DNA from: Nitrososphaerota archaeon
GTDB taxonomy: Archaea > Thermoproteota > Nitrososphaeria > Nitrososphaerales > Nitrosopumilaceae
DNA length: 64,000 nucleotides
Assembly: GCA_028866655.1 (NCBI GenBank)
Contig: JAGWHQ010000001.1
Coordinates: 62,001-126,000, forward strand
Direction: 5' to 3'
The number at the start of each line of letters is the position of its first letter. Positions within the stretch are counted from its first letter, which is position 1. Made by a program: the position numbers and the translations under genes. The notes under the pieces are model-generated. The model was not told where the DNA came from. It saw only the letters and a list, made by a program, of their open reading frames with translations, and made no database searches. This document shows, piece after piece, positions 15,496 to 20,666 of the stretch.

Positions 15496-16242
15496 ATGGT
15501 CAAGACAAGAATTGTTCCTTCACAACCAGCATTGATTTTAGAAGATACACAACGTTTTCTTGTTGTTACAGACTTGCATATCGGATTTGAGATTGGCATG
15601 ATCTCAAATGACATAAACGTAAGACCAGAAGGCATGATTGAAGAAATCCATTCCACTCTTGATTCTCTGATAAAATCAGAAAAACCTGACAGCCTCATCA
15701 TACTGGGCGATATCAAGTCAGGCATAGATTCCATCTCAAAGATAGAATGGCAAGCAGTGCCAATGTTTTTTGAGATTGGAAAGAGGATCAATACACTAGT
15801 TATTCCAGGGAATCATGATGGAAACTTGGCCAAATTGATTCCAGATTATGTATCCATGACTGGCCCATCAGGTCTAGTCATAGGAGACACATTACTGACA
15901 CATGGTCATGTGATGCCATCTGAGAATTTTTCTCAGGTAGACAGAATAGTTATGGGTCATCTTCATCCAGTATATTTTCAAGAGGGTTCTGTACTTGATG
16001 GACAACGACTGTGGGTGTCAATCAAGACAAAAAAGCAAAATATTTTTCCATCAACCAAAGGAGATTTGGAGATAATAATTGTGCCATCTTTTAACAAATA
16101 TTTTTACGCCACACACAAGCGATATCACAAAAAATCAATCTCACCAATACTTGAGAGAATCAGAAAAGATAATTCTGCAAAAATTGTGACACTGGATGGT
16201 TCCATAATTGGAGACGAGTCAATACTTGAAAATATAATCTAG
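15496..16242 (+). CDS. Metallophosphoesterase (ICC/YfcE-like, archaeal DNA-repair-associated type)
   Basis: The calcineurin-like dimetal motifs are all present: VVTDLHIGFE (about 22-31), LIILGDIKSG (71-80), VIPGNHDGN (100-108), LLTHGHVMP and VMGHLHPVY. ATG 15496 gives 248 residues; a TTG lies directly before it. In other archaea such PF00149 proteins often sit beside DNA-repair helicase genes, but that neighbour is not seen here. The next gene on this side is the SWIM zinc-finger gene, divergently oriented. Substrate unknown: DNA, RNA or nucleotides are all possible. Confidence 0.85.
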   Translation: MVKTRIVPSQPALILEDTQRFLVVTDLHIGFEIGMISNDINVRPEGMIEEIHSTLDSLIKSEKPDSLIILGDIKSGIDSISKIEWQAVPMFFEIGKRINTLVIPGNHDGNLAKLIPDYVSMTGPSGLVIGDTLLTHGHVMPSENFSQVDRIVMGHLHPVYFQEGSVLDGQRLWVSIKTKKQNIFPSTKGDLEIIIVPSFNKYFYATHKRYHKKSISPILERIRKDNSAKIVTLDGSIIGDESILENII

Positions 16243-19200
16243 TCCACTTTTTCGTATGACTCTAGCGGTTTTTTTGTAGTATCATTGTGTTGTAGCCATT
16301 CTAGTGTCTTTGCAAAAGAATCTGCAAGCTCTGTTGTTATCAGCACCGGAATTCCAAGCTCAACTGCCTTTCTTCTTATTTGATATTCATCATAAAGCAT
16401 GCCAACATATTTTTCAAGTGTCGAAGTACTTGGTACATTTATGATAAAGTCAATCTTTTTCTCATATAGCAAATCTGCAATGTTTGGTTTTCTCTGAGGC
16501 TCACTGATTTTGTAGACAACTTCAACATCGCCTATTCTTTTATCTGACAAAAATTCTGCAGTGTGTTCAGTTGCAAGTAACTTGTATCCAAGACTTTTGA
16601 GTAACAATGCAGTCTGGAGTAGTTTTTCCTTGTTCTCAGAGCCACCTGCACTAATGAGCACCGAGCCTTGTTTTGGCAATGAATATCCAACAGATGTCAA
16701 GCCTTTTGCAAGTGCATCATAGAAACTATCTCCAAAGCAAGCAGCCTCTCCAGTAGATTGCATCTCTACTCCCAGTATGACATCAGCACCATCAAGTTGC
16801 ATAAAGGAAAACTGGGGAACTTTTATTCCATAATGATGTATCTTGCGCCATCTGTCTTTTGCAACAATCGGCAATGGTTTTCCAAGCACTGCGCGTGCTG
16901 CCAGGTTGATAAGATTCATCCTGACAAATTTTGAGACAAATGGCATAGAGCGAGAGGCCCTGATGTTAAGTTCTATCACATAGACCTGGTCTTGGTTAAT
17001 CAAAAACTGGAGGTTAAATGGTCCCTTGATTTTAAACGCAATTCCAACTTTTTTTGCATAGTCAAGTATAGTATCAACTACCTTGTTGTTCAGTGTCCAA
17101 GGCGGAATGCACATCATAGAATCACCAGAATGAACACCAGCACCTTCAATGTGTTCAATGACTGCACCAATGACCACATTTTTTCCATCTCCCACACCAT
17201 CAACTTCGGCTTCAAGTGAGTTTAGCATGAATTTTGTTATGACAACAGGATAATCAGGGGAGACATTTGTTGCTTCGGCAAGATATTTTTTTAATTGTGT
17301 CTCAGACCAGACAACTTTCATCGCAGCCCCACTCAATACATAAGATGGTCTTACAAGAACTGGATAACCAACTTTGGTCGCAAATTTTTTGGCATCAACA
17401 AGACTTGAAAATGCTTGCCATGGTGGCTGTCTAATATTTAGCTCATCCAATACCTTGCTAAAGATTGAACGGTTCTCAGCTCTGTCAATGTCTTCAAATG
17501 ATGTTCCGATTATTTTTATTCCGTTTTGTGCAAGTTTCGGAGTAAGGTTGTTTGCAGTCTGTCCTCCCACTGCTGTAACAATGCCATCTGGTTTTTCAAA
17601 ATCTGCAATGTCTAGTACTCGCTCCAGTGTCAACTCTTCAAAGTATAGCCTATCACAGATATCATAATCAGTTGATACTGTTTCAGGGTTACAATTTATC
17701 ACAGATACTTCTTTTACTCCATTTTCTTTTAGGCCCCACACCATGTTTACAGTACCCCAGTCAAACTCGACACTGCTTCCAATTCTATATGGACCTGCAC
17801 CAAGCACTGCAATTTTTTGAGCGTCAGATGTTACCTCAAAATCATTGACTTTACCACCATAAGTTAGATACAGATAGTTTGTTTTTGCAGGCCATTCTGC
17901 TGCCAGGGTATCAATTCGCTTTACCACAGGCGTTATGCCTGCTGCTTTTCTTATTTTTCTAACCTCAAGATCTTCTTTTCCAACCAATCTTCCAATCTGT
18001 TTGTCAGAGAATCCAAGCTGCTTTGCTTCACGCAGTAACGTATCATCAAGTGTAGTAGATTCTTTGAGACGCTTTTCCATTTTTACAATATTTTCAATTT
18101 TTTCAATAAACCATGGGTCAATTACAGACAGTTTATAGATTTGCTCAATCGACATTCCCTGTCGGAGTGCTTCTGCTACATAGTACAAGACATGGTCATC
18201 AGATTTTTGTAGCTTGTTTTCAATCTCTTCGATGTCGTATTTTTTATCAGAATTACGGTTTGCAACTAGTCCATCATTTCCAATCTCAAGCATTCGGATT
18301 GCTTTTTGTAGAGACTCTTCAAAGCACCTGCCAACTCCCATGACTTCGCCAACTGATTTCATTGTTGGACCCAAGTTGCGATTTGCAAGCTCAAACTTGC
18401 TAAAGTCCCACCTTGGATGTTTACACACAATATAATCAAGAGACGGCTCAAAGCACGCAGTTGTAGTCTTGGTTATCCTGTTTACAAGTTCTGGCAAGGT
18501 ATGACCCATGACAATTTTTGCAGCCATGTATGCTATAGGATACCCGGTTGCTTTGCTTGCAAGTGCAGAAGAGCGAGATAGTCTTGGATTCATTTCTATT
18601 GCAACATACTTGTCAGAATATGGATCTAATGCAAACTGGACATTGCATTCTCCAACAATTCCAACATGTTTTGCAGCACGAAGTGATGCAGAGCGCAGCA
18701 TTTGGTATTCATAATTGTCTAGTGTTTGAGATGGTGCAACTACAATGTTATCACCAGTATGTACTCGCATTGATAGAACATTTTCCATGTTGCATATGAT
18801 TACATTATTTCCAGTATAATCTGCCATGACTTCGTATTCAATTTGTTTCCAGTGTCCAATGTATTCTTCAATTAACACCTGTCCTACAAGGCTTGCATTA
18901 AGACCCCTTGTTACAATTTCATGGAGTTCAATTTCGTTGTGTGCAACTCCTCCACCTTTTCCTCCAAGAGTATATGCGACACGTATGATTACAGGATAAC
19001 CAATATCTTTTGCAACTTTTTTTGCCTCTTCAAAGTTATAGACAGTCCTGCTTTTCAGTACAGGAACGTTGCATGCAATCATGGAATCCTTGAAGAGTTG
19101 TCTGTCTTCAGTTGCCTGGATTCCAGTTACTTGTGTTCCAAGTACCTTTACTCCATATTTTTTTAGAATATCAAGTTCAGCCAACTTTACTCCACAGTTG

Positions 19201-19507
19201 AGCGCGGTTTGGCCTCCAAAGCCAAGCATTAGACCATCAGGCCTCTCTGCTTCTATGATAGATTCTACATATTTTGGATTGACTGGAATAGAGTAAACCT
19301 TGTCTGCAAATCTTGTATCAGTCTGTATTGTTGCAATGTTTGGATTTACAAGAACACTCTTGATTCCTTCTTCCTGGATGGCTTTGAGGCATTGGCTACC
19401 GGAGTAGTCGAATTGACGGTCATTTTATGACTTTCGCCTGCTTCTCCGATTTTAATGGCCCCACTGCCAAGAACTAGAATCTTCTTTAACGACTCATCTT
19501 TTGGCAT
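16239..19507 (-). CDS. carB: Carbamoyl-phosphate synthase large subunit, gene interrupted by a 20-nt intron-like insert
   Basis: CarB makes carbamoyl phosphate from ammonia, bicarbonate and two ATP, for pyrimidines and arginine. Exon 1 is 19507-19433 (ATG, 25 codons, MPKDESLKKILVLGSGAIKI then GEAGE). Exon 2 is 19412-16239 (1057 codons plus stop, beginning FDYSGSQCLKAIQEEG). Joined, they give 1082 residues, the normal length, with two ATP-grasp halves (GYPVIIRVAYTLGGKGGG; GYPVLVRPSYVLSGAAMKVV), VEFDWGTVNMVWGLKENGV at the start of the second half and a C-terminal allosteric domain. Unspliced, the frame from ATG 19507 ends at TAA 19348-19346 after 53 residues, and the downstream frame has no start before 19229. 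The start overlaps carA by 14 bases. Automatic annotation would call this a frameshifted pseudogene or a truncated gene from 19229. Confidence 0.93.
19413..19432 (-). other. Putative 20-nt archaeal bulge-helix-bulge (BHB) intron in carB
   Basis: On the coding strand the insert is AGTCATAAAATGACCGTCAA. The fold around it is: central helix GGCG (19438-19435) with CGTC (19418-19415), G-C, G-U, C-G, G-C; bulge 1 AAA (19434-19432); inner 5-bp helix GTCAT/ATGAC closed by loop AAA; bulge 2 AAT (19414-19412). Archaeal splicing endonuclease cuts after the second base of each 3-nt bulge. That rule removes exactly these 20 bases and joins GGC GAA to TTC GAC, restoring the CarB motif GEFDYSG. A further 7-bp pairing, ATCGGAG (19450-19444) with CTCCGGT (19404-19398, one G-U), may clamp the exons across a 5x7 internal loop. 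The sequence pattern is seen directly; splicing is inferred. Confidence 0.85.
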
Positions 19508-20666
19508 TGTCCTCCCCTATGAGTTTCTTGAGCTCTTCAAAAATAAACATGCAATCAAAAGGTCCAGGTGATGCTTCTGGATGAAATTGTACGGCAATTA
19601 TTTTCTTTTGTTTGTGTTTTATTCCTTCTACTGTTTTATCATCAGTGTTTGTAAACCATAATTTAAAATCAGTATTTTTTAGCGAGTCAGGGTCTATGCA
19701 GTATCCATGATTTTGACTTGTCACATAGACTTGGTCATTGTCAAGATTAATACAAGACTTGTTTTGTCCGCGATGGCCATACTTTAGCTTGTATGTACTT
19801 GCACCACCTGCTAGTCCCAGTATCTGTGCACCAAGACAAATTCCAAGTGTTGGAATATTTTTCTCAATTGCTTGTTTTGCAGTAGTCATTGTTTCAGCAC
19901 ACTTGGTTGGATCACCCGGTCCATTTGAAAATATTATTCCCTTTGGATTGTATGCCATTATTTTTTCAAGCGAATAATTCCATGGAACTTTGATTACCTT
20001 GTATCCAAGACTTCGTACATTTCGTAGTATGGAATTTTTCACTCCAGTATCAATTACCACAATTGACTCGGTTCCAGAACCAAACGTCTGTGGTTCTTTT
20101 ATTGATACAGTATTCATAAATTCCTCGTCGTTGTATTTTTTAGCAGACTCTAATTTCTTTTTGATTTCTGGCACGTTAATTGGAGTATCTGATACCACTA
20201 ACGCTGCCATCATCACTCCACTTGTTCGAAGTTTTATTGTAAGTTCCCTTGTATCAATTCCTGAAATTCCAGGGATTTTTTCATTGTAAAGCCATTCATC
20301 CAGAGTCATGGACAGGTTCCAGTGGCTCGCAGTAAGGGATAATTCATGTACCACAAGACCTCGTGCCTGAATTATCTCAGACTCTAGATTCTTTCGTATG
20401 CCATCAGGGTCTTTTACGGCAGGGTCAGGAACACCATAATTTCCAACAAGAGGATAGGTAAGCGTCAGAATTTGGCCGCTGTAGGATGGATCGGTTAGTG
20501 CCTCCACATACCCAGTCATACCAGTATTGAATACTGCCTCACCAAACGCTACAGTAGAATATCCAAAACCCATCCCCTCAAAAACAGTCCCATCTTCTAA
20601 AATCAACATACCAAACTTGTTTGCATGTTTGGCTTTTTTTATTGGAATCCTTGAAACCCTCTGCAT
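19494..20666 (-). CDS. carA: Carbamoyl-phosphate synthase small (glutaminase) subunit
   Basis: CarA hydrolyses glutamine and passes ammonia to CarB. The 390 residues include the N-terminal CPSase domain (LILEDGTVFEGMGFGY; FNTGMTGYVEALTDPSYSGQ; TYPLVGNYGVPD) and a class I amidotransferase domain with the nucleophile Cys in TLGICLGAQILGLAGG, followed by KYGHRGQNKSC and the His-Glu pair in QFHPEASPGP. The start at 20666 lies about 20-25 bases after an AATTTAAATC box on the minus strand. An internal Met at residue 20 is also possible. It overlaps carB by 14 bases, so both are co-transcribed. Confidence 0.96.
   Translation of the reverse strand: MQRVSRIPIKKAKHANKFGMLILEDGTVFEGMGFGYSTVAFGEAVFNTGMTGYVEALTDPSYSGQILTLTYPLVGNYGVPDPAVKDPDGIRKNLESEIIQARGLVVHELSLTASHWNLSMTLDEWLYNEKIPGISGIDTRELTIKLRTSGVMMAALVVSDTPINVPEIKKKLESAKKYNDEEFMNTVSIKEPQTFGSGTESIVVIDTGVKNSILRNVRSLGYKVIKVPWNYSLEKIMAYNPKGIIFSNGPGDPTKCAETMTTAKQAIEKNIPTLGICLGAQILGLAGGASTYKLKYGHRGQNKSCINLDNDQVYVTSQNHGYCIDPDSLKNTDFKLWFTNTDDKTVEGIKHKQKKIIAVQFHPEASPGPFDCMFIFEELKKLIGEDNAKR

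What the first reader, a model, noticed from the sequence alone, without database searches (positions are those of the whole stretch)
19398..19450. A 20-nt bulge-helix-bulge intron inside carB: pre-mRNA splicing of a metabolic gene
carB has a net 20-base insert inside its conserved GEFDYSG motif. Without removal the ribosome stops after 53 residues. The insert is flanked by a near-ideal archaeal splicing substrate: 4-bp helix GGCG/CGTC, 3-nt bulges AAA and AAT, inner hairpin GTCAT/ATGAC. Cutting after the second base of each bulge and ligating gives GAA-TTC and restores the frame and protein exactly. Frame restoration, protein homology, helix geometry and bulge rule all agree on the same bases. 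From memory, BHB introns in protein genes are known in only a few cases such as cbf5 of Crenarchaeota; at 20 nt this one would be near the lower size limit for archaeal introns. I know of no described carB intron.
Basis: partly seen in the sequence, partly recalled or inferred. Interest (0 to 1): 0.95.

Follow-up and report, generated by a model that had tools for sequence, protein, structure and literature searches.

The report
Hidden mRNA intron in archaeal carB
In this archaeon, a relative of ammonia oxidizers, the gene for the large subunit of carbamoyl-phosphate synthase is broken by a 20-letter insert that also sits at the same spot in many related species and is predicted to be an intron that the cell's tRNA-splicing enzyme would cut out of the messenger RNA, a kind of messenger RNA splicing reported before for essentially one archaeal gene.

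Summary
In detail: carB (minus strand, 19507-16239) is interrupted by 20 nt at 19432-19413; removing exactly these restores a 1082-residue protein. It is not a private error. The same site carries a 20-40 nt insert across the order: in the family, 138 of 223 classifiable genomes and at least one carrier in each of 22 genera; seven families in all; named carriers include Nitrosotalea devanaterra and Nitrosopumilus salaria. Sequences change while the bulge-helix-bulge stays: 4 of 5 inner-helix pairs show compensatory changes. Exon bases beside the insert are frozen in carriers at just those silent positions that pair, forming further helices. All 44 distinct inserts whose length is a multiple of three contain an in-frame stop (27% in shuffles). 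The genome encodes two splicing-endonuclease subunits. I therefore read it as a bulge-helix-bulge pre-mRNA intron, probably ancient in the order and lost repeatedly. Splicing itself was not observed. No spliced N-terminus was among the 120 best protein-database hits, and the papers seen describe such introns inside coding mRNA only for cbf5, plus unproven predictions.

The parts
16239..19507 (-). carB, large subunit of carbamoyl-phosphate synthase (interrupted gene)
   Evidence: NCBIfam TIGR01369 on the downstream ORF; spliced 1082 aa
19433..19507 (-). exon 1, 25 codons, MPKDESLKKILVLGSGAIKIGEAGE
19413..19432 (-). 20-nt intron AGTCATAAAATGACCGTCAA
   Evidence: frame restoration; same-site inserts in relatives
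16239..19412 (-). exon 2, begins FDYSG, ends with stop
19435..19438 (-). central helix, 5' strand GGCG (exon)
   Evidence: pairs counted; RNAalifold
19432..19434 (-). 5' bulge AA|A; predicted cut between 19433 and 19432
19427..19431 (-). inner helix 5' strand GTCAT
   Evidence: compensatory changes at 4 of 5 pairs
19419..19423 (-). inner helix 3' strand ATGAC
19415..19418 (-). central helix, 3' strand CGTC (intron)
19412..19414 (-). 3' bulge AA|T; predicted cut between 19413 and 19412
19444..19448 (-). outer exon helix, 5' strand CGGAG
   Evidence: all 5 pairs in 147 of 149 carriers vs 8 of 42 non-carriers
19400..19404 (-). outer exon helix, 3' strand CTCCG
19458..19463 (-). distal exon clamp helix, 5' strand TGGGGC
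19385..19390 (-). distal exon clamp helix, 3' strand GCCTCA
19494..20666 (-). carA, small subunit, overlaps the carB start by 14 nt
   Evidence: NCBIfam TIGR01368; coordinates

Best explanation
The 20-nt insert in carB is predicted to be a bulge-helix-bulge (BHB) pre-mRNA intron that the cell's heteromeric tRNA-splicing endonuclease would cut out after the second base of each 3-nt bulge, after which an RtcB-type ligase would likely join GAA to TTC and so restore the GEFDYSG motif. Shown by sequence: the break in the gene, its exact repair by removal of 19432-19413, the same-site inserts of 20-40 nt in many relatives, compensatory changes that keep the inner helix, silent-site freezing of exon bases that form the outer helices, and genes for two endonuclease subunits. 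Inferred: the cutting, the ligation, and that the spliced message is what is translated. Also inferred: the intron arose once within the order and was lost several times; unspliced messages are translated until a stop codon in or behind the intron ends translation, so full-length CarB is made only after splicing.
For: Frame repair. Same site in all 30 same-genus genomes with a full match, of 37 searched; in the family 138 with, 85 without, 5 undetermined of 228 with a match, of 250 searched (tally from the printed rows). Carriers in 7 of the 17 families sampled in the order, one family unreadable. A1, 104 distinct sites: 96.8% of cells paired, 127 cells with changes on both sides against a shuffled mean of 40.7 (0 of 500 as high), slides of the partner 20-56% paired; RNAalifold finds the same BHB unaided. 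Silent sites in the family (57 carriers, 30 non-carriers): ATC 100% where non-carriers have ATT 73%; GGC 100% where they have GGA 47%; TAC 100% against TAT 83%; TCC 96% against TCT 80%. Outer helix fully paired in 147 of 149 carriers and 8 of 42 non-carriers; distal clamp with at least 6 of 7 pairs in 114 of 149 and 13 of 42, and in 0-1 of 149 when slid. 44 of 44 distinct multiple-of-three introns hold an in-frame stop (letter shuffles 27%; other frames 2 and 10 of 44; other lengths 41 of 69, Fisher p = 7e-8). Two PF01974 proteins in the genome, one keeping the GIDHAP histidine of the A. pernix catalytic chain 3p1z_B (E 8e-42), the other without it. An RtcB piece at a contig end.
Against: No RNA or protein evidence was available. 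The window's own lowest-energy fold is not the exact BHB (1.5 kcal/mol below it); the full BHB is the computed optimum in 70 of 127 distinct sites, and within 1 kcal/mol of it in 87. Compensatory changes in A1 are confined to the inner helix: the central and outer helices vary on one side only (G-C to G-U) or not at all; the number of pairs with a double change is no higher than in shuffles (296 of 500 as high; 205 of 500), nor is the number of pair types in A2 (338 of 500). The first central pair is broken in 11 of 104 sites and the fifth inner pair in 38 of 104. The 3' bulge is not closed by a helix directly next to it (relaxed motif). The distal clamp's end pairs are broken in 23 and 11 of 60 sites. 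RtcB was seen only as a fragment. Related sequences are not independent in any of these counts.
Confidence: 0.94

Rival explanations
1. Translational bypassing or programmed frameshifting: ribosomes hop over or shift past the insert, the hairpin being the recoding signal.
For: A hairpin sits inside the gap and the insert is short, as in phage T4 gene 60 (recalled).
Against: Take-off codon and the last three gap bases are identical in 0 of 113 distinct inserts. Lengths of all three phases occur, and the 21-nt forms would need no shift yet all carry a stop. Exon bases on both sides are conserved as helices, and the cut rule of the splicing endonuclease fits without adjustment.
Confidence: 0.03
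2. carB is read from an internal start (ATG 19229), making a CarB without its first 86 residues; the upstream part is a decayed or leader segment.
For: This is the longest uninterrupted ORF, and no near-identical full N-terminus is among the 120 best database hits, which fits proteins annotated from a downstream start.
Against: Exon 1 remains a coding segment that ends in KIGEAGE: it is 25 codons from the farthest in-frame ATG in 84 of 143 carrier rows and 18 of 20 non-carrier rows, and 43 codons in 50 carrier rows that have an earlier in-frame ATG (rows not made unique). The family model requires the missing 86 positions. Structure conservation across the insert would be unexplained.
Confidence: 0.02
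3. Assembly error or pseudogene.
For: Many of the genomes are metagenome bins.
Against: Same site in many separate assemblies, including single-contig genomes and named species; 93.6-96.8% of pair cells kept; the remaining 1057 codons are open.
Confidence: 0.01

Closest known systems
cbf5 (dyskerin homologue) BHB pre-mRNA intron of Desulfurococcales and Sulfolobales
   Same: Short intron (16-44 bp) in a coding sequence, BHB or relaxed BHB motif, heteromeric splicing endonuclease, presence and absence among relatives, ignored or misread by gene annotation (PMC2738675: passages, conclusion and reference list seen).
   Different: Different gene (carbamoyl-phosphate synthase instead of an RNA-modification enzyme) and different lineage; cbf5 of Cenarchaeum symbiosum and Nitrosopumilus maritimus is listed there with intron size 0. 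That paper reports splicing of cbf5 messages; carB splicing is unproven. Exon clamp and stop-codon rule were not tested for cbf5.
Archaeal tRNA and rRNA BHB introns
   Same: Same motif, same predicted cut positions and enzymes; Thaumarchaeota are described as having the alpha2-beta2 endonuclease (PMC4090602, passages).
   Different: Here the host RNA is a coding message in which removal must also restore the reading frame.
HVO_1309 BHB sites in a Haloferax volcanii mRNA 5' UTR
   Same: An mRNA substrate of the archaeal splicing endonuclease (PMC7714728, passages).
   Different: Lies in the untranslated leader; not an intron inside a coding sequence.
Putative 12-bp introns in genes of the rudivirus SIRV1
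   Same: Short inserts proposed as introns in archaeal coding genes (as described in PMC2738675, passage; the original paper was not seen).
   Different: Splicing not shown there; virus genes.

Membership tests
Archaeal BHB pre-mRNA intron | Insert interrupts a conserved ORF and its removal restores the protein exactly | tested here: met
   GEFDYSG restored; uninterrupted in 85 non-carrier genomes of the family
Archaeal BHB pre-mRNA intron | Two 3-nt bulges on opposite strands separated by a 4-bp helix, with an inner helix | tested here: met
   with the caveat that the outer helix is not adjacent (relaxed form) and the exact BHB is the computed optimum in 70 of 127 sites
Archaeal BHB pre-mRNA intron | Cut after the second base of each bulge coincides with the frame-restoring cut | tested here: met
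   sequence; bulge 1 AAA or AGA in 109 of 113 distinct introns
Archaeal BHB pre-mRNA intron | Heteromeric splicing endonuclease encoded | tested here: met
   two PF01974/PF02778 proteins, one with and one without the catalytic histidine
Archaeal BHB pre-mRNA intron | RtcB-type ligase encoded | tested here: inconclusive
   one fragment at a contig end, positions 1-53 of 426
Archaeal BHB pre-mRNA intron | Spliced RNA and excised intron present in cells | not testable with these tools
   no RNA data
Group I or II self-splicing intron | Catalytic core, Rfam match | tested here: not met
   20 nt long; no Rfam match up to E 1 in 19200-19700
Translational bypassing | Matching take-off and landing codons | tested here: not met
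   0 of 113 distinct inserts

The most novel reading that the evidence does not exclude
carB of this order carries the second known family of archaeal pre-mRNA introns, dating back to an early ancestor of the ammonia-oxidizing archaea. Its exons have been recruited into the splicing substrate: two exon-exon helices clamp the BHB and freeze silent codon positions. Translation and splicing act as a checkpoint: ribosomes on unspliced message stop at codons in or behind the intron, so that arginine and pyrimidine synthesis depend on the tRNA-splicing endonuclease.
Probability: 0.45. Interest if true: 0.93.

Novelty: new member of a known kind. Interest (0 to 1): 0.88.

Why it matters
If true, it extends archaeal pre-mRNA splicing from one RNA-modification gene in Crenarchaeota to a core metabolic gene in ammonia-oxidizing archaea, a globally abundant group with cultured members (recalled), so splicing of a coding message could be studied in living mesophilic archaea. 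It would mean that carB start sites in carriers need re-annotation. The stop-codon rule and the frozen silent exon sites give two signatures by which further archaeal mRNA introns can be searched for, and the pairs of close species with and without the intron give natural replicates for asking how such introns are lost and what they cost.

Tried and rejected
Translational bypassing, frameshifting, internal start, pseudogene and self-splicing intron were considered and rejected for the reasons under rivals and membership. Intron outside the order: model R1 hit 58 of 398 genomes of the phylum (with stricter filters that lose weak matches); the seven hits outside the order are 32 nt long, i.e. 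the uninterrupted junction, as are four of the hits in the family (G128, G131, G152, G159). tRNA introns of the window as in-house examples: no tRNA gene found in the window. First structure string for alignment A2 was shifted by mistake (31.9% paired); the corrected one is. Most out-of-family genomes were chosen because the uninterrupted motif was absent, so carrier fractions outside the family are not estimates. A1 left out ten of the 114 distinct sites then in hand, those with introns of 27 nt or more. Literature: ten searches, of which named carB or carbamoyl phosphate and concerned eukaryotic tiny introns; in their listings and in the passages read I saw no report of a carB intron. I saw passages of five papers (PMC2738675, PMC12397907, PMC4090602, PMC7714728, PMC13149111), for the first also the conclusion and references. 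The C. symbiosum genome paper is not held, and subscription papers are mostly outside the library.

Full report
What was checked. The window lies on contig C11 of a 1.42-Mb, 94.6%-complete genome. The same genus in the genome set contains a genome whose contig length equals that of Candidatus Nitrosotalea devanaterra LN890280.1 (G002:C1, 1,805,304 bases), so the window comes from a Nitrosotalea-like archaeon. carB lies on the minus strand directly behind carA, whose end it overlaps by 14 nt. The claimed insert is present at the claimed bases. With the insert, translation from ATG 19507 stops after 53 residues; without 19432-19413 it runs for 1082 residues. A DNA search of the genome with the region gave one match, the region itself.

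The structure. Around the insert: exon GGCG pairs with intron CGTC (4 bp, one G-U); on either side stand the bulges AAA (19434-19432) and AAT (19414-19412); inside is GTCAT/ATGAC with a 3-nt loop. Cutting after the second base of each bulge gives exactly the frame-restoring intron. The window's own minimum-energy fold keeps the inner and outer helices but shifts the central pairs, 1.5 kcal/mol below the BHB. Over 127 distinct sites the optimum has at least 3 of 4 inner pairs in 124, at least 3 of 4 central pairs in 90, and the complete BHB with open bulges in 70; the BHB lies within 1 kcal/mol of the optimum in 87 and at most 2.8 above it. So the single-sequence case is good but not decisive; the comparison decides.

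Distribution. Of 37 same-genus genomes 30 gave a match, and all 30 carry an insert at this site. Of 250 family genomes 228 matched the CarB N-terminus; 138 carry the insert, 85 do not, 5 could not be classified (the tally from the printed rows, plus for the genus, is). Each of the 22 genera has at least one carrier; non-carriers are concentrated in two large genera (g14: 4 with, 21 without; g15: 24 with, 61 without), with one each in g5, g13 and g16. Outside the family, carriers were found in families f3, f5, f8, f10, f11 and f12; in f2, f4, f6, f7, f9, f14, f15 and f17 the genomes read had none, and f13 showed the uninterrupted motif; f16 gave no match. Altogether the site was read by one strict pattern in fetched DNA of 208 genomes: 166 with an insert of 20 to 40 nt, 42 without. 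In the phylum-wide model search the true inserts are all in this order, which by the named records is the Nitrososphaerales of GTDB (order name recalled). Named carriers include Nitrosotalea devanaterra, N. bavarica, Nitrosopumilus salaria BD31, and Nitrosocosmicus, Nitrososphaera, Nitrosopolaris, Nitrosarchaeum, Nitrosotenuis and Cenarchaeum records.

Evidence that the RNA structure is under selection. In alignment A1 (104 of the 114 distinct sites then in hand; the ten with introns of 27 nt or more were left out) 96.8% of pair cells are standard pairs; 127 cells have both sides changed against 40.7 in shuffles (0 of 500 as high); sliding the partner drops pairing to 20-56%. Four of the five inner pairs show compensatory change. 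RNAalifold finds the same inner, central and outer helices without being told. Against this: the double changes are all in the inner helix; the central and outer helices change on one side only, and the number of pairs with a double change is not above the shuffles (296 of 500 as high). One left-out site, L087, has GGTG/CACC as its central helix, a double change read by eye. The shuffle control ignores relatedness, so its number is not a probability; but the inner-helix changes occur in different genera and families.

Evidence in the exons. Within the family, 57 carriers and 30 non-carriers with distinct 144-nt exon flanks were compared codon by codon. Of the eleven codons around the site, seven are fixed at 95% or more in carriers (ATC, GGA, GAA, GGC, GAC, TAC, TCC), and the third base of each of these seven is paired in the model; the four others (Ala -3, Glu -1, Phe +1, Gly +5) are free, and their third bases are unpaired in it or lie beyond it. 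Non-carriers mostly use other codons at these places (ATT 73%, GGT 63%, GGA 47% for GGC, GAT 100%, TAT 83%, TCT 80%); GAA is common to both. Mean silent-site entropy over the eleven is 0.48 bits in carriers and 0.70 in non-carriers; outside them the order is reversed (1.15 and 0.98). The frozen bases make the outer helix CGGAG/CTCCG, complete in 147 of 149 carriers and 8 of 42 non-carriers. A further helix, TGGGGCA/TGCCTCA in the consensus, has at least 6 of 7 pairs in 114 of 149 carriers and 13 of 42 non-carriers (in the family 78 of 83 and 13 of 30), and in at most 1 of 149 when slid. In one search (60 sites) one of its pairs has five double changes, but its two end pairs are broken in 23 and 11 sites. 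Thus some 80 nt of message, mostly coding, seem to fold as one splicing substrate. The Woesearchaeota locus was left out.

Evidence from stop codons. Of 113 distinct introns, 44 have a length divisible by three. All 44 contain a stop in the upstream reading frame; whole-letter shuffles, which do not keep the structure, give 27%; the other two frames of the same introns 2 and 10 of 44; introns of other lengths 41 of 69. Stops lie at codons 2, 3, 4, 6, 7 or 9 and use all three stop codons, so this is not one inherited triplet, although most share a TAA at codon 3 and are not independent. The simplest reading is that unspliced message is translated and that an in-frame read-through product is selected against.

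Machinery. The genome has two endonuclease genes. One protein (177 aa, L032) matches the catalytic chain of the Aeropyrum pernix enzyme (3p1z_B, E 8e-42) and keeps the histidine in GIDHAP that is alanine in 3ajv_B; the other (186 aa, L033) is of the same family but has no histidine there (that the histidine is catalytic is recalled). That is the two-subunit type which PMC4090602 assigns to Thaumarchaeota (passage) and which PMC2738675 links to relaxed motifs in messages (passages). RtcB is seen as a fragment at a contig edge.

History. A tree of 116 CarB proteins (quick search, exon 2 only) needs 9 changes of intron state, at least 7 on well-supported branches. Close pairs differ (L070/L089 in f12, L079/L213 in and near f10, L064/L071 in f8, L063/L163 in g15; the last two on branches below the star). 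This fits one origin inside the order and repeated loss, but gain, loss and gene transfer are not separated; an intron-less g13 copy (L057) sits among g15 copies, which looks like transfer.

Known or not. PMC7714728 states that to date only the cbf5 mRNA of Crenarchaeota had an additional BHB intron (passage); PMC2738675 says there was no confirmation for genes other than cbf5, with other introns predicted (conclusion). The literature searches, listed under tried and rejected, showed no carB intron. In the protein search with the spliced N-terminus none of the 120 best hits (of 7999 scored) exceeds 87% identity; a correctly spliced Nitrosotalea protein should have ranked first, so the database appears to lack it. 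I file it as a new member of a known kind.

Limits. Nothing here shows RNA being cut or joined. Carrier fractions outside the family are biased by how genomes were chosen. The regulatory reading (a splicing checkpoint on carbamoyl-phosphate synthesis) is inference.

Noticed in passing
L303 (JAGVZX010000036.1), minus strand around 2135-2284: A contig titled Woesearchaeota carries the same-site carB insert (21 nt) and a second 32-nt insert 24 bases upstream; removing both gives VVILGSGAVKIGEAGEFDYSG. The second insert folds BHB-like, but its canonical cut is one base off the frame-restoring one.
   Followed up: partly
L303:2258-3604 (-): A 448-aa gene with homing-endonuclease-associated HNH repeats (PF18780) lies between a carA-like ORF and the twice-interrupted carB of that contig, a possible hint at how such introns move.
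   Followed up: partly
L135 and G072:C35: Genome G072 shows two carB copies on different contigs; L135 has a 21-nt insert and the other gives a split match, so it looks interrupted too. Possibly a mixed bin.
   Followed up: no
L057 (G079, genus g13): Intron-less carB that groups with intron-less g15 copies in the CarB tree: possible gene transfer replacing an intron-bearing allele.
   Followed up: no
exon flanks of carB in the family: Codons -10 (GGG 96%) and +9 (CTC 93%) are also frozen in carriers; they belong to the distal clamp helix.
   Followed up: yes
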